Part shown: piece by piece, positions 12,666-21,082 of the stretch
Layout of the letters: each line of letters opens with the position of its first letter
How positions within the stretch are numbered: position 1 is the first letter of the stretch
Virus record (IMG/VR): IMGVR_UViG_3300021185_003040
Coordinates: 1 to 64,000 of that record
Reading direction: 5' to 3' (one strand)
DNA length: 64,000 bases
Source: a virus
Position numbers and translations under genes: made by a program
The notes under the pieces: generated by a model
The model's database searches: none
What the model saw: the letters and a program-made list of their open reading frames with translations, nothing else
Told to the model about the DNA's origin: nothing

Positions 12666-12742
12666 TGGCGGCCTGGACGAGACTCGAACTCGCGACCTCA
12701 TGCGTGACAGGCATGCATTCTAACCAGCTGAACTACCAGGCC
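12666..12742 (-). tRNA. tRNA-Asp (GTC)
   Basis: Minus-strand cloverleaf with acceptor stem GGCCTGG/CCAGGCC, anticodon stem CATGC/GCATG enclosing CTGTCAC (anticodon GTC), and T-loop TTCGAGT. The 3' CCA is encoded. It lies just after the PspC-to-nuclease operon on the right side. Confidence 0.93.
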
Positions 12743-12748
12743 AATTTG

Positions 12749-12833
12749 CGGAGAAGAAGGGATTCGAACCCCTGGAACCGTGAAGTTCGCTGGTTTTCAA
12801 GACCAGTGCATTCGACCACTCTGCCACTTCTCC
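12749..12833 (-). tRNA. tRNA-Ser (TGA)
   Basis: Minus-strand class II cloverleaf with acceptor stem GGAGAAG/CTTCTCC, anticodon stem CTGGT/ACCAG enclosing CTTGAAA (anticodon TGA), an extended variable arm and T-loop TTCGAAT. CCA is not encoded (the sequence after the discriminator is CAA). It is six bases from tRNA-Asp, so the two are probably co-transcribed. Confidence 0.93.
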
Positions 12834-13288: not shown

Positions 13289-16018
13289 TTACCAACCTGA
13301 ATTCTTTTTAACTTTGATTCCAGATGAGGTTAATGTTTCTTCTAACTCTGATATAGCGTCAACGACCGGAGATAGGTCCATTTTAGGAGCTCCTCCTGTT
13401 GGGGTATTCTTTTTAACTTCTGCAGTATTGCTCGTGACTAGATCTTTAACTTTATTAAGTGCCTTACCAATTACACTAGTGGCTTCGCCAGAAGTTTTAC
13501 CTTGTCTAGCAACTGCTTTATCCAGGGCGTCAACTGCAGTTGATAATTCTGCAACAGCTTTCAATAGATCATCAGCTAGGACTTTCATTGGATTATTATC
13601 CTGTTCTGCTAATTTACGTAAAGAATCGAACATCTTTGTGGTTGCGTTGATTGCACCAATATTCATCTTGTTAGATTCCTTTGCAAGTAAACCATAATTC
13701 TTAGCAAGCGTTCCAACATGTTTTGCTGAACTTCTTAGGTAGTCTACTCTACTGTAGTTAGAGAATGGTAATAGTGCGTTAAGAGCTTTAATTCCTTTGT
13801 TTTGATATTTAGCTAATTCTGCAAAACCTTTTCCAGCAGCAGCTACAGCTGGTCCTAAACTAGTAATACCCTTTTTTCTGCTTATTAATTTATCTAGGAC
13901 TTCAAATGGTCCATCTGTTTTAGTCAACCCACCAGTCACAAAATCTAACACCTTTCCGGCACCTGAAGCTACGCCAGTTAATAGTCCACCAACTGCTTGT
14001 CCAGCCAATGCACCAACTAATGCTAACCAACCGCCTGCAATTGAAACTAAACCGGCGCCTAGGGCTGATAAATTTTCTATTCCAAGTTCTTCTTTTATTC
14101 TAACAAATGAATCTATCATTCCGTTAACAGGAGCTAATAACATATCCGTGAAATTTTTACCAATTGCTCCTAAATCTGGTAATTTGCTAAATATCCAAGC
14201 AACTGCCCATATAGTACCTGCTAATAATATCATACCAAGGGCACCTAATCCTAGTGCTGCTGCACCTACACCTGACGTAGCAATTAAGCCGACAACACCA
14301 AGTGGAACTGCAAATGCAGAAATAGCAAACACAGCGCCTATAGTCCATTCAATAGGTATTGGTACAAAACTTCCTGGTAAAACTGAGAATATCCATGCAG
14401 TTGCAAGTACTGCGATACCAATCGCTGCTATGCCGACTAGTCCCATTGCCAAGTCTTTAAGGCCAACTCCAAATGTTTTCATCAGTTTAACTACTATCAT
14501 AAACCCAAGGCCAAAGATAGCTACCGCTAATCCTGTTTTTAATGACCATTCAACTGGTACTGTTTTAAATTCATCTGGTAGATATTGGAATATGAATGCG
14601 ACTGCTAATATACCTAAAGCTATGAATCCCATGGCTAATGCTGCAAGTCCAATTTCCTTTATATCCATTCCTCGAGTTGCTTTAGAAATAAAATAAAATG
14701 CTATACCAAATACTGCCATAGCCAAACCTACCTTTAAACTCCATTTTGCTGGGGGTGCATTATATGCCTTTACTTTTGCTAAAAAAGTAAACATTAAAGC
14801 TACAGCAACAATAGTACCCGCAAGTAGAGGGACGGCTAAAGATGCATAGAGTATCTCCTTTAATGTTTTTCCTTTAATACTTCTTAATATCATCACTAAT
14901 GGAATAGAAAATATGAAAAGAGCAAAACCTGCCTTTAGAGTCCATGATGCAGGTGGAGCCACATAATTACCGCTTAATCCTTCCATTGCGTAAGAAACTC
15001 CAGCAATTGCTAAAGCTATTAATGGTATTGCAAGTGCAGCAAATATCATTTGTTTAAGATTTAATCCTTTGACCGATCTTAGTATTATAGCAAGTGGAAT
15101 TGAAAAAACAAAAAGCATTAACCCTGTCATAAAAATCCAATCTAATGGAGGTCCTGCGATAAAGGTTTCTGGCATCATGGCCATGGCTCCTGCGACACCT
15201 GCTATTGCAAGTGTAATTGCTACCATAACTAACATCGACATTGCTATTGTTTTTGCTCCATTTTTATCCATTCCTATTCCGCCCTTCTTTAATGCCATTA
15301 CGACACCTAAAAATGCCATTGCCATGGGTTGTAGTGCAAATCCTATTACAGCGGCTGATATTAATTTCTTTAATTGAACGGGTTGTACTGCTGATAAAAT
15401 ATAACTTGAAACAGTTATTAATACAGCTGCACCTAATACAACCATAAATGCCATTTTCATCGCTCCATTTTTAGACATTTCATCTCCACCTGGACCTAGT
15501 GCGCTTTTACCGGCAGCTCCTCCAAATTTAGATATCGCAAATTTACCTGCCATGAAACCCAACCCTCTGACGGGTGAAAGTAACATTAACATTTCTACCA
15601 TTGCTTTAACCAATGGAATTAATGCAAGTGATATAAGAATGGCTGTTGCTAACTGAGCAACCGAAACTGGAGCAATTCCTTGCATAATATAAGAAGCGAG
15701 TGTAACAGCGCCAGCGGCTAACACTACCATAATTCCTAGCTTAGCAGCACCTCCAAGGCCAAAGCCTCCTTTTTCTCCTCCTGCTTTACCAGCTGCCTTG
15801 CCTCCCTTAATATCATTATGTAAATCTGTAATTGCAGTCTTAATATCTAATAATACATCAGTTTGTCTTTCTAATATACTTTTAACATTATCGCTACCCT
15901 TGATTAGAACATCTACGCCTAACGCGACAGCAGACATTTTATTGTCTGTATTTTCACTTGCCTTAGCTATCCTCTGTAAAGGAGATAACAGTATGTTGTC
16001 CTTTGCGTTATTGGCCAT
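13289..16018 (-). CDS. Putative tail tape-measure protein with tandem hydrophobic repeats
   Basis: At 909 residues this is the largest product of the tail block. Polar coiled-coil ends (residues 1-75 and about 690-909) flank a very hydrophobic centre containing tandem repeats. Two units of about 100 residues share K-x-x-x-MVVL...VSSYI/ASYI followed by V-x-L/A-x-L; then five units of about 65 residues share P-x-x-W-[ST/I]-x-K-x-G-x-[AM] followed by an LKEI/LKDL-like turn and a hydrophobic segment ending before the next PP-x-W. It lies directly after the gp26-like protein and its frameshifted extension, the position of tape-measure genes in tailed phages. If extended as alpha-helix, 909 residues could span about 136 nm. 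The tape-measure call is from context, size and repeats; no direct match to T4 gp29 is visible. Confidence 0.6.
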   Translation of the reverse strand: MANNAKDNILLSPLQRIAKASENTDNKMSAVALGVDVLIKGSDNVKSILERQTDVLLDIKTAITDLHNDIKGGKAAGKAGGEKGGFGLGGAAKLGIMVVLAAGAVTLASYIMQGIAPVSVAQLATAILISLALIPLVKAMVEMLMLLSPVRGLGFMAGKFAISKFGGAAGKSALGPGGDEMSKNGAMKMAFMVVLGAAVLITVSSYILSAVQPVQLKKLISAAVIGFALQPMAMAFLGVVMALKKGGIGMDKNGAKTIAMSMLVMVAITLAIAGVAGAMAMMPETFIAGPPLDWIFMTGLMLFVFSIPLAIILRSVKGLNLKQMIFAALAIPLIALAIAGVSYAMEGLSGNYVAPPASWTLKAGFALFIFSIPLVMILRSIKGKTLKEILYASLAVPLLAGTIVAVALMFTFLAKVKAYNAPPAKWSLKVGLAMAVFGIAFYFISKATRGMDIKEIGLAALAMGFIALGILAVAFIFQYLPDEFKTVPVEWSLKTGLAVAIFGLGFMIVVKLMKTFGVGLKDLAMGLVGIAAIGIAVLATAWIFSVLPGSFVPIPIEWTIGAVFAISAFAVPLGVVGLIATSGVGAAALGLGALGMILLAGTIWAVAWIFSKLPDLGAIGKNFTDMLLAPVNGMIDSFVRIKEELGIENLSALGAGLVSIAGGWLALVGALAGQAVGGLLTGVASGAGKVLDFVTGGLTKTDGPFEVLDKLISRKKGITSLGPAVAAAGKGFAELAKYQNKGIKALNALLPFSNYSRVDYLRSSAKHVGTLAKNYGLLAKESNKMNIGAINATTKMFDSLRKLAEQDNNPMKVLADDLLKAVAELSTAVDALDKAVARQGKTSGEATSVIGKALNKVKDLVTSNTAEVKKNTPTGGAPKMDLSPVVDAISELEETLTSSGIKVKKNSGW

Positions 16019-16345: not shown

Positions 16346-16648
16346 TTATAATTTAGGAACTGATATTTTTGGAATATTCATTTTTGGAATTTTCATATTC
16401 TGTTGCATCTGTTCACTTTGTTCCTGTTGTCCCTTATTAGCTTCATTTTCTTTCTGTAAATGATCAGTTAGATCTTTCACGAGATAGTAAAATTCATAAT
16501 AATCCATGTTTTCCAATTCGGAAGGTTGTACATGTAAGACCCTATAGATATGAAACTTCGTTTTAAAGAAGTTCTCCAGAGAGATCTTGAACAATGAATA
16601 AAGATTTGATTCCGTCACGAAACCCAATCGGAACGAGGACCTCGTCAT
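16346..16648 (-). CDS. +1-frame extension of the gp26-like tail assembly protein
   Basis: This 100-codon frame overlaps the last 86 bases of the upstream gene. The upstream frame ends CTT CTT TAA, and a +1 slip on CUU-U would continue as K-T-K-F-H-I-Y, adding 72 residues (helix SELENMDYYEFYYLVKDL, a Gln/Glu-rich linker and a K-x-N-I-P-K-I tail) for a 392-residue fusion. The site is the same CUU-U slip used in bacterial prfB, and GGAG lies just upstream. Overlapping, frameshifted chaperone genes directly ahead of the tape-measure gene are a conserved feature of tailed phages. It could instead be an independent gene from the ATG at 16648, but its first 28 residues look like shadow sequence. Confidence 0.6.
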   Translation of the reverse strand: MTRSSFRLGFVTESNLYSLFKISLENFFKTKFHIYRVLHVQPSELENMDYYEFYYLVKDLTDHLQKENEANKGQQEQSEQMQQNMKIPKMNIPKISVPKL

Positions 16649-17525
16649 CCTCGTGCGGTACCAACATCTCAGGCTGGATTCCGACTTTTAATTTTTCTGC
16701 TAATTTGTATACTAAACTATATTTCTTATTTGACCAACCATTAACTTCCATTTCGAAATTAAAAATAGTCTTATCAGTATATTGTCTCCAATCATTTACG
16801 ATGTAAGGAATTATTTGTAGAATAGATTGATCTGCTATTTCTCCTTTTTCCTGCTTATCTTTAATATGTTTAGTCATTTTTTGCATCACTCCAATACTAG
16901 GTGGAGTCATTTCAATTATACCGAAAGATTTTGTTTCAATTTTAAAACTCTTAGATTCTTGATCATAATACTTATCTAATTCTGCTGGTATTTTAAAATA
17001 TTGAAAATACTTCTTATTTACCTCAGCCGTATGTCTACCTCCTTTTTTATCTTGATAAGGAACTGTCAATTGGCTTTCAGGTTCTGGGAAAGTAAGATCT
17101 CTAATAGCTAAAACTAAATAGAATCTATCTTCCTCTAAAATATCTCTATAAGACATTCTTTTAGCTCCTGATGTAATTCTTACACATGATTCAATTATGT
17201 TATTTAATTTTTCATCAATATCTAGTACATTATTCTCGTCTACTGTAGAAAAGTGTCTAATTTCTGAAACTTTTGCAGCTCTAATAGAAATTTCTGATTT
17301 TTCATTGTAGAACATTCCACCTGAAGGAAGTTCTGCATGAGAAACACTATGATATCCTAAATGAAAATCTGCTTCCTTAGCTTCCTGTGGTTTAAACTTA
17401 TTCATATCCACCTTTCCTAGATCAGCTGGTTCTTCAGCTTCTACGGGTGCATTGTTTTCGTTATCCTCTATCATAGCTTTATATTGCTCGTCAAGGTTAA
17501 CCGGTTTGTTTTTGTCTTCGCTCAT
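16563..17525 (-). CDS. T4 gp26-like baseplate/tail assembly protein
   Basis: The 320-residue protein has an acidic N-terminal arm (1-50), then HAELPSGGMFYNEKSEISIR and VSEIRHFSTVDENNVLDID, followed by DRFYLVLAIRDLTFPEPE. The LPS-x-G-x-x-Y start followed by an E-x-x-x-x-T segment is the pattern I associate with the T4 gp26-type base-plate protein family. T4 gp26 is about 208 residues, so this copy is longer. Its C-terminus contains the putative +1 frameshift site. The position upstream of the tape-measure candidate supports a role as chaperone or hub assembly factor. Family assignment is from motif memory. Confidence 0.55.
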   Translation of the reverse strand: MSEDKNKPVNLDEQYKAMIEDNENNAPVEAEEPADLGKVDMNKFKPQEAKEADFHLGYHSVSHAELPSGGMFYNEKSEISIRAAKVSEIRHFSTVDENNVLDIDEKLNNIIESCVRITSGAKRMSYRDILEEDRFYLVLAIRDLTFPEPESQLTVPYQDKKGGRHTAEVNKKYFQYFKIPAELDKYYDQESKSFKIETKSFGIIEMTPPSIGVMQKMTKHIKDKQEKGEIADQSILQIIPYIVNDWRQYTDKTIFNFEMEVNGWSNKKYSLVYKLAEKLKVGIQPEMLVPHEDDEVLVPIGFRDGIKSLFIVQDLSGELL

Positions 17526-17531
17526 GTTTTA

Positions 17532-17750
17532 TTATTTAGATTTGAGTTGTTTAATTCTATTTCGATCCCAACTCTTTTGAAGATCGCTTTTTTTATCTAT
17601 TTCTTGTCTTATTAAGTCTCTGATAAACGCCGAAACTGAAACCGGTCTCTCTCCATTTTCAATCGCCTCGTTTAGTATAATCCTGTTTATTATAAACACT
17701 TCTTCTTCAGAGAGTAATACCTGTAATTTCTTAGTTAGTTTACTGGACAT
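17532..17750 (-). CDS. Ribbon-helix-helix-like small protein (72 aa)
   Basis: The start KLQVLLSEEEVFIINRIIL is followed by helices with VSAFIRDLIRQEID, the strand-helix-helix pattern of CopG/Arc-type DNA-binding proteins. Residues around SVSAFIRDLI resemble the second helix. It sits between the tube protein and the gp26-like gene in a late operon. It may be a regulator, or a small assembly protein that looks similar. Confidence 0.55.
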   Translation of the reverse strand: MSSKLTKKLQVLLSEEEVFIINRIILNEAIENGERPVSVSAFIRDLIRQEIDKKSDLQKSWDRNRIKQLKSK

Positions 17751-17827: not shown

Positions 17828-18382
17828 TTAAGCTAATACTTCTTTAAAAGTATCACATTTCCATGTTACTTCTAAAGCAGCTGCTTCTGGAGATTCATAA
17901 CTTAAATCGTTAGTGAATGGAAGTCCAGAATTAATCCAGCAATCTTCTAATGTTATAGTTCTGTAAATATCACCAGCTCTATTGAATTGTACGATTACGA
18001 TTGTTCCAGTATAGTCTTTCTTTAAGCCCATTACACCAGTCTGTGGATCGTAAGCTAAGTTATACCATTGTCTCATTGTTTTATATAAATAAGCTTGGTT
18101 TGCCTCGTTTAAATTTAACGAAAAGTTAATACCCACCGTAAGTGTAGTATCATCTGGCATTCCAGCGTATGAACGTGAAGAGAATTTGTATTTCTGTGCT
18201 ACCTCTCCAGGTGCTTTATATAATTCCAACCCGCTAACAGAGTTAACATGTTGAAGTAATAGCGGTGCGTCAGCAACTCCAGCAGGAGGTAAAATAGTTA
18301 CCTCAAATAAGTTTCCTTGTACTGGTTCGAATTGTCTACCCGCCTTACTAGTTTGATCTTGTGAATAGTGTGGTAAAGCCAT
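17828..18382 (-). CDS. 19: Tail tube protein gp19
   Basis: The 184-residue protein has the tail-tube layout: an N-terminal arm, NLFEVTILPP strand, HVNSVSGLELYKAPGEVAQKYKFSSRSYAG and the C-terminal VTWKCDTFKEV. T4 gp19 is 163 residues. It stacks as hexamer rings on the baseplate under the sheath and conducts DNA. It is directly downstream of the sheath gene, as in T4, with a late-type box between and a terminator after it. Confidence 0.9.
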   Translation of the reverse strand: MALPHYSQDQTSKAGRQFEPVQGNLFEVTILPPAGVADAPLLLQHVNSVSGLELYKAPGEVAQKYKFSSRSYAGMPDDTTLTVGINFSLNLNEANQAYLYKTMRQWYNLAYDPQTGVMGLKKDYTGTIVIVQFNRAGDIYRTITLEDCWINSGLPFTNDLSYESPEAAALEVTWKCDTFKEVLA

Positions 18383-18418: not shown

Positions 18419-21082
18419 TTAACTAAAGTTTCCTGTTGAAATTTCACCAGTATTTAAAATCGTCGTTCTGTGTACAACTATTTCTAAACCTTTAACTGGC
18501 TCAACAAATGTATCTATGATACCGATGTTGTTATCAATTACCTCACCTGTGTTATTTGATTGATCCATTACGTTTTTGAAATCATATACACCACCATCTT
18601 GTCTAACTGATTCCATTAATGAATCTGCTAGAGTTTTGATTTCTAATCTAGTTTGTGCATTGTTAAATTCGAATACGTAATCCTTAAGGATATCTGCCAT
18701 TGCATCTTGAATGTAAATTAACACTTCTCTAACATGAGCTGAAGATAGTGATGATTTAATAGATTGCTGTGCAGTTTTATTTCCTAAGATAGTTAAACCA
18801 ACTCCTCTTTGGAATACAATTGGGTTATAACCAAATGGCTCTAAAATGTCTCTATCTGATTTGTCAAAAGAATATTCAGCTCCTGCAACGTTAGTTCCAG
18901 CAACAACACCTCTTCTAGGACCAGCGACAATTGACCATGGTAAAGCGTCTGTGTATTTATCAATATAGTTATTAGATACATAAGCAGCTGGTGGAACGAT
19001 TAAATCTTTTCCATTTTCTCTTACAATAAGACCAGGACCATAGTAGAATGCAAAGTTTGCACCATCTGCGATACTCGGTAATGTATATAGTGATGTTGGA
19101 TTTTGATCTAAGTTACCTCCATCTTTAATGTATGAAGTTTTAAATGAGCCAAATTGATCTTTAAATGAAGGATCCGTAGATTCTTTAAAGTCTTTTACCA
19201 TTGGTGCATTTAATATAGCTGCTGCGTTTTGTCTTTCTTTTGCTAATTGAGATAATTGAATTTTATTTTGTAATCCATTTAAATCGTAAGATCCAAATGT
19301 ATCAACAATATATCTAAAGTCAATTGCATCTTTATCTACTAAACCAGTTGCCAATCCTGTTCCTAATGAAATAGCCTGTAAACATGAAGTAATAGTTTCT
19401 GCTTCAATATCTGCGCCATTTAATACGAATGGAGTATATGAAACTGCTGCATCTTCTAAAGATTCAACAAATGCAGTAGGGGCAACTAAAGGAGCCGCTT
19501 CTGATAATTTAATAGTCCATACTATTTGTTCGCTTTCGTTTTTAGAAACAGAAACCTGCTCAACTAGAGCTAATCTTTCACCTGTTCTGATATAATTTCC
19601 TTTTTTAACTTCAGGATTAAATGTAGATAGTGCACCAGTGTATGTAAATATTGCATTAGTTCCATCAGCAGAGTATGTTAAATCCGACCCAGGGAATAAT
19701 ATTGTTCTATTTGCAATGTCGTAAGATAATACTACTTGATCTTGAGCGGCTTCGTCAAATGTGTGACCAACTAAATCGATTGGAGTATCTCCAGATTCGT
19801 CAGTTACTAAATCTTCAGCAATTGCACAGAATAAACCTGTTCTTCTTGCTTCAGCGTTAATCATTGTTTCGATATATACGTTTCTTCCTTCTAAGTCTTT
19901 AAAACCTGGAAGCATTGAACCTGTATAAGAACCTATCATTTCAACTTGTCTTAAGTTTGCAAATTGTTCTATTAGCTCTTTTCTTAAACCTTTATTGTCA
20001 AAGTAATATCCATAAACTGGATCAGTGTCCATTGCCGCAGCATCAAATTTACCTTTGAATACAAATACGTCAATCATATAATCTGACATTAAATCTTTAT
20101 TATCTAAATATGCTGGAACATTTCCTTCTCCATACCATTCTCTTGCAGTAACATCAAAGCCAGCAGTATCTTGTGCTTTTCTTGTGAAAACTGTGATTGG
20201 GGTTTGTTTAATATTTACAAAGTTTAAAACTTGATTAGAATCCTGTCCTAGTGTTTGTAATACTTTTTCGTCAGAAGGAATCATGAATTTATCCGTGTCA
20301 AAGAAATTAGCATAAGCATAGTCTCCAGTTTGGTGACCTAATTCAGGATATGTTGCAATAGTAAAGTCTGCTAAATATTCTGCTTCTGTATATAATTGTT
20401 CTTCAGTTCCTGCATTGTAAATATCAAATGTAGTTGCTCCAATGTAAGATGCATCTAATACATCACTACTAGGTGCGATACCTATCATAGTATTTCCACT
20501 AGAGAATGACACTCCAGTTATTTGTGCAACAGTTCCATCTGATTGTAATAAGTAATCGTTAGTTGAAATAGATCCAGTAAAATCTTCTCCAACGATCTCT
20601 ACACCCTGTCCTGATATACCACTCGCTACCGTTAGAGATGCAAGTGTAAGAGTATTAGTAATTGCCGGAGCAACATAAGCGACTTTTACATCACCTTCAA
20701 CCCATGTGTTTCCAGCTGGTCTTTCCATTAAGGGATCAGTTTTATATGATCCATTTGTTGAAATTTGTGCAGCTGAAGCTAAATCATTTTCTCCAAAATG
20801 AGCAAGGTTAAGAGCTAGGATAGGTCCTCTTGAAAGAGCAGCCTTAGCTGATCTGTGGAAGAACATTCCTTTTTTCTCTAACGACTTGTCGATGTTTCCA
20901 TATACTTGAATGAATGCTTCAACGTTTTCGATTAATACTGGTGTATTATAAGGTCCCTTTCTTGAGTGACCAACAACCAGCCTAAGAGTAGAAACGTCAA
21001 TATTAGCAGTTTGGGATTTATCAAATTCCAATCTGTAAACGCCTGAACTCTTGAATTGTAATAATTGAGGACTTAGTGCCAT
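18419..21082 (-). CDS. 18: Tail sheath protein gp18
   Basis: The 887-residue protein begins with a conserved beta segment (FKSSGVYRLEFDKSQ), and the C-terminal 250 residues hold the sheath core signatures: YGPGLIVRENGKDLIVPPAAYVS..., AGPRRGVVAGT, and a final domain with REVLIYIQDAMADILKDYVFEFN and NTGEIS. T4 gp18 is 659 residues, so this copy has more than 200 extra residues, probably surface domains inserted in the first half (about 130-560). It forms the contractile outer tube. A late-type box lies 32 bases upstream. Confidence 0.92.
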   Translation of the reverse strand: MALSPQLLQFKSSGVYRLEFDKSQTANIDVSTLRLVVGHSRKGPYNTPVLIENVEAFIQVYGNIDKSLEKKGMFFHRSAKAALSRGPILALNLAHFGENDLASAAQISTNGSYKTDPLMERPAGNTWVEGDVKVAYVAPAITNTLTLASLTVASGISGQGVEIVGEDFTGSISTNDYLLQSDGTVAQITGVSFSSGNTMIGIAPSSDVLDASYIGATTFDIYNAGTEEQLYTEAEYLADFTIATYPELGHQTGDYAYANFFDTDKFMIPSDEKVLQTLGQDSNQVLNFVNIKQTPITVFTRKAQDTAGFDVTAREWYGEGNVPAYLDNKDLMSDYMIDVFVFKGKFDAAAMDTDPVYGYYFDNKGLRKELIEQFANLRQVEMIGSYTGSMLPGFKDLEGRNVYIETMINAEARRTGLFCAIAEDLVTDESGDTPIDLVGHTFDEAAQDQVVLSYDIANRTILFPGSDLTYSADGTNAIFTYTGALSTFNPEVKKGNYIRTGERLALVEQVSVSKNESEQIVWTIKLSEAAPLVAPTAFVESLEDAAVSYTPFVLNGADIEAETITSCLQAISLGTGLATGLVDKDAIDFRYIVDTFGSYDLNGLQNKIQLSQLAKERQNAAAILNAPMVKDFKESTDPSFKDQFGSFKTSYIKDGGNLDQNPTSLYTLPSIADGANFAFYYGPGLIVRENGKDLIVPPAAYVSNNYIDKYTDALPWSIVAGPRRGVVAGTNVAGAEYSFDKSDRDILEPFGYNPIVFQRGVGLTILGNKTAQQSIKSSLSSAHVREVLIYIQDAMADILKDYVFEFNNAQTRLEIKTLADSLMESVRQDGGVYDFKNVMDQSNNTGEVIDNNIGIIDTFVEPVKGLEIVVHRTTILNTGEISTGNFS

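What the first reader, a model, noticed from the sequence alone, without database searches (positions are those of the whole stretch)
16346..17525. CUU-UAA +1 frameshift candidate linking the gp26-like protein to a 72-residue extension ahead of the tape-measure gene
Sequence shows: the upstream frame ends CTT CTT TAA A, the +1 frame is open through it and continues to 16346, and the first 28 codons of the second frame look like shadow sequence. CUU-U is the slip used in prfB. GGAG lies a few bases upstream. Known: tail assembly chaperones before tape-measure genes often use programmed frameshifts, but most are -1. Inference: a +1 event in a T4-like phage would be unusual.
Basis: partly seen in the sequence, partly recalled or inferred. 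Interest (0 to 1): 0.75.

Follow-up and report, generated by a model that had tools for sequence, protein, structure and literature searches.

The report
Phage tail chaperone uses +1 frameshift

Summary
CTT CTT TAA is conserved, yet the +1 frame is already under protein-level selection for about 17 codons upstream of it, and so is the +1-frame homology to the T4/cyanophage gp51 tail. +1-frame stop codons in relatives come within two codons of one site: TTT CGY at window 16622-16617. TTT-C is invariant in 93 of 93 distinct core-clade sequences; every Phe there is TTT, and nearly every A-site codon is CGT/CGC although AGA makes up 82% of Arg codons in this window. TTT-C also sits at the aligned place in Lak megaphages, PAU, pT24, MaF61 and several huge phages, where the next amino acid differs.

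The short form (320 aa) is a T4 gp26-type tail assembly chaperone. The long form (302+90 = 392 aa) adds a gp51-type C-terminal domain. T4 makes the pair with two genes and cyanophages with a -1 frame arrangement at TTTTTTC; this lineage uses +1 at UUU_C, the influenza PA-X motif, with no stop codon in the A site and no detectable RNA structure. Evidence is comparative; no peptide or efficiency data exist.

The parts
16563..17525 (-). Short form: T4 gp26-type tail assembly chaperone, 320 aa, zero frame
   Evidence: ORF. Relatives PAU gp93 and LR756500 exceed the Pfam PF12322 (T4_baseplate) cut-off. The AlphaFold2 model matches predicted T4-like baseplate hub / gp51-like proteins and the PTm1 and pT24 homologues.
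16617..16622 (-). Slip site TTT CGT (P-site UUU slips to UUC; A-site codon CGU; TTT 16622-16620, C 16619)
   Evidence: TTTC in 93/93 distinct contexts; degenerate-pattern scan TTT 88/88 and CGY 88/88; TTT C at the aligned place in most distant relatives.
16346..16618 (-). +1-frame extension, 90 aa plus stop: gp51-type C-terminal domain (VTESNLYSLFKISLENFFKTKF...SVPKL*)
   Evidence: phrog_634 (gp51, baseplate hub assembly catalyst) matched by 28 of 33 extensions; hhalign to cyanophage/T4 gp51 tails prob 91%, E 9e-7; AF2 helix 5-28 at high pLDDT runs across the CTT TAA point.
16563..16618 (-). Dual-coded stretch: frame 0 RDGIKSLFIVQDLSGELL-stop, frame +1 VTESNLYSLFKISLENFFK
   Evidence: Synonymous-codon diversity collapses from codon -19 to -1 of ORF1 at most columns; substitution phase switches to the +1 frame.
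16563..16571 (-).
16646..16648 (-). ATG that would start ORF2 as a separate gene; not conserved
   Evidence: ATG in 16/46 representatives; 56/93 contexts have no +1 ATG upstream of the constrained stretch and 17/93 no ATG/GTG/TTG.
17828..18382 (-). Tail tube protein (context)
   Evidence: phrog_4542 tail tube E 2.7e-7.
18419..21082 (-). Tail sheath protein (context)
   Evidence: phrog_34521 tail sheath E 1.8e-126.
13289..16018 (-). Tape-measure candidate, 909 aa (context)
   Evidence: Inferred from position, length and hydrophobic composition; no family match.

Best explanation
The locus makes two forms of a T4 gp26/gp51-type tail assembly chaperone from one gene. Most ribosomes read ORF1 to its stop (short form, 320 aa, ending -ELL). 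Some pause with tRNA-Phe on UUU in the P site and a slow, rare Arg codon CGU in the A site. The tRNA slips forward one base from UUU to UUC, and translation goes on in the +1 frame through 90 codons. The result is a 392-aa long form ending in the gp51-type helical domain. By analogy with lambda G/GT, the short form would coat the tape-measure protein and the long-form tail would recruit tube or hub subunits. Shown by comparison: two overlapping coding frames, position of the switch, invariant TTT-C, homology of both halves. Inferred: slippage by tRNA-Phe, the role of the slow CGY codon, a minority long form, chaperone function.
For: Substitutions fall on frame-0 position 3 upstream of codon -19, and on +1-frame position 3 from about codon -13. 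Same-codon frequency rises to 0.9-1.0 from codon -19 onward at most columns. +1 stops lie one codon upstream of the slip codon in 5 contexts and 3-4 codons upstream in 4 more, so the shift must occur at or after it; codons -17 (+1 ACG 40/46) and -15 (+1 TCA 44/46) already show +1 constraint. The only conserved re-pairing site in that interval is TTT C: 93/93 and 88/88 in a scan that allowed every synonymous codon, although Phe is 69-77% TTT, TTT is followed by C only about 17% of the time elsewhere in ORF1 (81/472), and CGY is about 7% of Arg codons in this window. TTT C also occurs at the aligned place in Lak, PAU, pT24, LR745206, LR756501, LR756502, LR756500, MaF61 and L081, before Gln, Pro, Arg or Leu. 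Extensions match phrog_634 in 28/33 and cyanophage gp51 from residue 5 on. Some relatives have no start codon at all in the +1 frame upstream of the ORF1 stop (L030, L065, L036, L081). Neighbours are tail tube and sheath.
Against: No experiment and no efficiency figure. Codons -18, -16 and -14 still vary in the frame-0 manner, so +1 constraint on the first residues after the slip is weak. Three distant lineages lack TTT C at the aligned codon: PTm1 has TTT CAA some six codons upstream, MA9V-1/2 have TTT CTA some codons downstream, LR756504 has none nearby. The window's own ORF1 has no Pfam match; its gp26 kinship comes through relatives and the fold search. TTT CGY is not itself rare by chance in the window (2 found, 1.7 expected); the argument is conservation, not rarity.
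Confidence: 0.91

Rival explanations
1. One reading: +1 slip at CUU_UAA (prfB-like), fusing all 320 residues of ORF1 to a 72-residue extension.
For: CTT TAA R in 93/93 contexts; CUU to UUU re-pairing is the prfB slip (PMC10885494); a stop codon sits in the A site.
Against: The codons upstream are already under +1-frame selection. gp51 homology and the first helix of the domain run across the point. Conservation of CTT CTT TAA follows from dual coding (-ELL end / NFFK). GGAG is not conserved. Most distant relatives lack CTT there but keep TTT C upstream.
Confidence: 0.04
2. The shift occurs a few codons downstream of TTT C (between codons -17 and -12), for example at CTT TTC.
For: The fully +1 substitution pattern sets in at codon -13; cyanophages shift at the equivalent of the F in GLQSFF; MA9V has TTT C at that codon.
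Against: Codon -12 is CTT in only 33/46 and TTA in the window itself; -17 and -15 are already +1-constrained; no other codon there can re-pair +1 in all sequences.
Confidence: 0.04
3. ORF2 is a separate overlapping gene started independently (ATG 16648, GTG, TTG or re-initiation).
For: The window itself has an in-frame ATG at 16648; MaF61, PTm1 and the LR745206 group have ATG codons near the ORF1 stop.
Against: The ATG is in 16/46 representatives; 56/93 contexts have no ATG and 17/93 no ATG/GTG/TTG between the +1 stop and the constrained stretch. Several +1 stops lie one codon before the slip. MaF61 and LR745206 keep TTT C and the FSLF motif upstream of their ATGs.
Confidence: 0.03
4. Transcriptional (polymerase) slippage makes a mixed mRNA pool that fuses the frames.
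For: It can in principle give +1 products; nothing in the data speaks for it directly.
Against: There is no homopolymer run: the site is TTTC and the codon before it varies freely (AGY, GGG, ACC, AAC), whereas slippage needs long A or T runs (general knowledge).
Confidence: 0.01

Closest known systems
T4 gp26 / gp51 tail assembly chaperones (Vladimirov, Gautam & Davidson 2022, Virology 566:9-15; not held, known here only from its title and citations in PMC10885494 and PMC12846349)
   Same: Short/long pair sharing a PF12322 body, the long one with an extra C-terminal tail; T4 gp26 also ends -ELL.
   Different: T4 encodes the two forms as separate genes on opposite strands; here one gene with a +1 shift makes both.
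Cyanophage gp26-gp51 (P-SSM2, S-PM2)
   Same: Homologous domains, with the gp51 tail in another frame at the end of gp26.
   Different: Reached through the -1 frame with a TTTTTTC heptamer, not +1 at TTT C.
Phage lambda G/GT and other tail-chaperone frameshifts (reviewed in PMC5009743)
   Same: Same place between tube and tape-measure genes, short and long forms with a shared N-terminus.
   Different: Almost all are -1; Mu uses -2 and haloarchaeal HSTV-2 very likely +1 (PMC5009743).
Influenza A PA-X frameshift (UCC UUU CGU C, +1; PMC6165434)
   Same: Identical core: UUU followed by the rare codon CGU, +1 shift, no evident stimulator.
   Different: Eukaryotic ribosomes and an unrelated gene; resemblance by convergence only.
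SPP1 gp17.1* and Listeria PSA +1 frameshifts (PMC6316719, PMC5009743)
   Same: +1 shifts in phage tail genes.
   Different: They act on the major tail protein (PSA also capsid) at Pro codons; SPP1 and the PSA tail gene beside a stop codon.
prfB (release factor 2) CUU_UGA
   Different: Needs a stop codon in the A site; the site found here has a sense codon.

Membership tests
T4 gp26/gp51 (PF12322 / phrog_634) tail assembly chaperones | PF12322 body in the short form | tested here: met
   Met through relatives: window ORF1 itself does not match; 6 of 42 family members match PF12322, PAU and LR756500 over the cut-off; the fold search gives T4-like gp51/baseplate hub proteins.
T4 gp26/gp51 (PF12322 / phrog_634) tail assembly chaperones | Long form carries the gp51 C-terminal tail | tested here: met
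   phrog_634 in 28/33 extensions; hhalign prob 91%.
Lambda G/GT-type frameshifted tail chaperones | Gene lies between tail tube and tape-measure genes | tested here: met
   Tube 17828-18382 and sheath 18419-21082; the tape measure 13289-16018 is inferred.
Lambda G/GT-type frameshifted tail chaperones | Long form produced by programmed frameshift at a conserved site | tested here: met
   Comparative only: TTTC 93/93 and frame switch.
Lambda G/GT-type frameshifted tail chaperones | Both forms bind tape measure and help assembly but are absent from the virion | not testable with these tools
   Needs biochemistry.
UUU_CGU (PA-X-type) +1 frameshift site | UUU followed by C, slow A-site codon, +1 frame conserved downstream | tested here: met
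   motif of PA-X from PMC6165434.
UUU_CGU (PA-X-type) +1 frameshift site | No stimulatory RNA structure needed | tested here: inconclusive
   No consensus structure and z near 0, but a purine-rich upstream stretch is conserved.
prfB-type CUU_stop +1 site | The frame switches at the CUU stop | tested here: not met
   +1 constraint starts about 17 codons upstream.
prfB-type CUU_stop +1 site | Shine-Dalgarno-like element close upstream | tested here: not met
   GGAG varies (GGCG, GAAG, GACG, ACAG).

The most novel reading that the evidence does not exclude
A large lineage of T4-like phages, most of its named members on Bacteroidota and including megaphages, makes its gp26/gp51 tail chaperone pair by +1 frameshifting at a sense-codon site (UUU_CGY / UUU_C) with no stop codon and no RNA structure. 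Bacterial ribosomes would thus use the same bare motif as influenza PA-X. One homologous chaperone pair is then made in three ways: +1 shift, -1 shift, and two separate genes.
Probability: 0.78. Interest if true: 0.68.

Novelty: new variant of a known kind. Interest (0 to 1): 0.62.

Why it matters
T4-like phages have been described as making their tail chaperone pair by something other than frameshifting (title of Vladimirov et al. 2022). This locus and several hundred relatives indicate a +1 frameshift in a major branch, and give a clean comparison of three solutions to one assembly problem. It offers a simple, apparently stimulator-free +1 site (UUU_C with a rare CGY codon) to test on bacterial ribosomes. 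It also means the long chaperone is missing or truncated in the annotations of PAU, PTm1, pT24, MaF61 and Chryseobacterium phages.

Tried and rejected
Slip at CTT TAA: rejected from substitution phase, homology and helix continuity. Shine-Dalgarno GGAG as stimulator: not conserved. RNA structure: none. Independent initiation: rejected. -2 shift: no re-pairing at TTT C gives it. Rarity of TTT CGY in the window: not significant. Nucleotide search of GenBank phages: no match. The 16-row alignment A1 was too diverse to search with. A scan of genome contigs gave one small contig in a beta-proteobacterial bin, read as a binning artefact. Fold search of the extension alone gave nothing significant. 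Vladimirov et al. 2022 could not be read.

Full report
What is there. On the minus strand, ORF1 (17525-16563, 320 aa) ends GAA CTT CTT TAA A, and the +1 frame is open from upstream of the stop to 16346. Next to it lie a tail tube gene (17828-18382) and a tail sheath gene (18419-21082) upstream, and a 76-aa ORF and a 909-aa tape-measure candidate (13289-16018) downstream. The window is part of a 123,787-base virus record.

Where the frame switches. I aligned 46 representatives (clustered at 95%) around the ORF1 stop. Up to codon -20 substitutions fall mainly on frame-0 third positions. Over the last codons they fall on frame-0 first positions, which are third positions of the +1 frame. From codon -13 on, nearly all variation is silent in +1 and changes the frame-0 amino acid: ATA/ATT/ATC (Ile), TCG/TCT/TCA (Ser), TTG/TTA (Leu), AAC/AAT (Asn). 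Codons -17 and -15 already show it: Asp is GAC in 40 of 42, giving +1 ACG, and Ile is ATC in 41 of 42, giving +1 TCA, against backgrounds of 29% and 16%. The same-codon frequency per column jumps at codon -19 and stays high to -1 at most columns. So the last 17-18 codons of ORF1 are read in both frames, and the shift lies upstream of CTT TAA.

Bounding the site. In five distinct contexts a +1-frame stop lies one codon before the slip codon, in four more 3-4 codons before. The shift must therefore happen between there and codon -17. The one element conserved there is TTT C: 46/46 representatives, 93/93 distinct contexts, and 88/88 in a collection scan with a pattern that allowed TTY, MGN and all other synonymous codons. 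In that scan Arg was CGT or CGC in 88/88, whereas AGA is 82% of Arg codons in the window and CGY about 7%. Representatives thinned to 4 at 70% identity still all have TTTC, with CGT, CGC, CCT and CAA as next codon. In distant relatives TTT C stands at the aligned place before CAA (Lak, LR756500), CCC (PAU, pT24, LR745206, LR756501, LR756502), CGA (MaF61) and CTC (L081). PTm1 has TTT CAA some six codons upstream, MA9V-1/2 TTT CTA some codons downstream, and LR756504 has none nearby.

Homology of the two products. ORF1 relatives PAU gp93 and LR756500 exceed the cut-off of PF12322, the family of T4 gp26 and gp51. The AlphaFold2 model of ORF1 (pLDDT 80) matches PTm1, pT24, T4-like baseplate hub assembly proteins and a gp51-like protein of Campylobacter phage CP21. 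T4 gp51 is a gp26-like body plus a C-terminal tail that matches phrog_634. Of 33 +1-frame extensions, 28 match phrog_634. Profile comparison with the cyanophage and T4 gp51 tails gives probability 91% and E 9e-7 with alignment from extension residue 5, against 27% and 7e-4 when only residues after CTT TAA are used. The predicted first helix of the extension covers residues 5-28 and runs straight across that point. T4 gp26 ends GLKEFFELL and the short forms here end GIKSLFIVQD..GELL, so the frame-0 -ELL end is probably functional too. This explains why CTT CTT TAA is invariant.

Mechanism. P-site tRNA-Phe on UUU re-pairs one base forward on UUC while the rare codon CGY waits in the A site. This is the scheme described for influenza PA-X, UCC UUU CGU C (PMC6165434). 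There is no stop codon in the A site, no RNA structure and no conserved Shine-Dalgarno element next to it. Farther upstream, codons -29 to -26 keep GGG GAY GAG GAG in many members with fixed synonymous choices, a possible stimulator not fully present in the window. The phage fragment encodes tRNA-Asp and tRNA-Ser only, no tRNA-Arg. Slippage itself, its efficiency and the chaperone function are inferred.

Alternatives. Independent initiation fails: the codon at 16648 is ATG in 16/46, and some relatives have no ATG/GTG/TTG at all in the +1 frame. Polymerase slippage lacks a homopolymer. A CTT TAA slip might occur as a minor extra event, but it cannot explain the +1 selection upstream.

Known systems. 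Tail chaperone frameshifts are common, mostly -1; Mu uses -2, and +1 is proposed for HSTV-2 (PMC5009743). +1 shifts in the SPP1 and PSA tail genes use Pro codons (PMC6316719 and PMC5009743). P-SSM2 and S-PM2 carry the gp51 tail in the -1 frame with TTTTTTC near the end of gp26, and T4 has two separate genes. Literature searches in the open library found no report of this +1 event, but Vladimirov et al. 2022 on T4-like chaperones is not held. I call it a new variant of a known kind.

Noticed in passing
window 16641-16652 and homologous codons -29 to -26 in L104-L161: A purine-rich stretch (GGG GAY GAG GAG) about 20-30 nt upstream of the slip keeps fixed synonymous codons in many relatives (Glu GAG 40/40 at one column against 27% background). 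It may stimulate the frameshift; the window has only a partial match.
   Followed up: partly
L034 and L042 (Chryseobacterium phages MA9V-1/2), L040 (Tenacibaculum phage PTm1), L039 (LR756504): These relatives lack TTT C at the aligned codon; MA9V has TTT CTA farther downstream and PTm1 TTT CAA farther upstream, suggesting the slip site can move. LR756504 has no obvious site.
   Followed up: partly
L053 (P-SSM2) and L054 (S-PM2), about 2150-2370: Cyanophage gp26 ends with TTTTTTC and the gp51 domain follows in the -1 frame: a likely -1 frameshift.
   Followed up: partly
L033, L034, L038, L040, L041: GenBank annotations of PAU gp94, MA9V-1 007, MaF61 ORF156, PTm1 gp023 and pT24 gp131 appear to be fragments of the frameshift extension.
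   Followed up: partly
window 12666-12833, minus strand: Two adjacent tRNA genes, tRNA-Asp(gtc) and tRNA-Ser(tga), downstream of the tape-measure candidate.
   Followed up: no
window 17532-17750, minus strand: A 72-aa ORF with a weak ribbon-helix-helix resemblance sits between the tail tube and chaperone genes.
   Followed up: no
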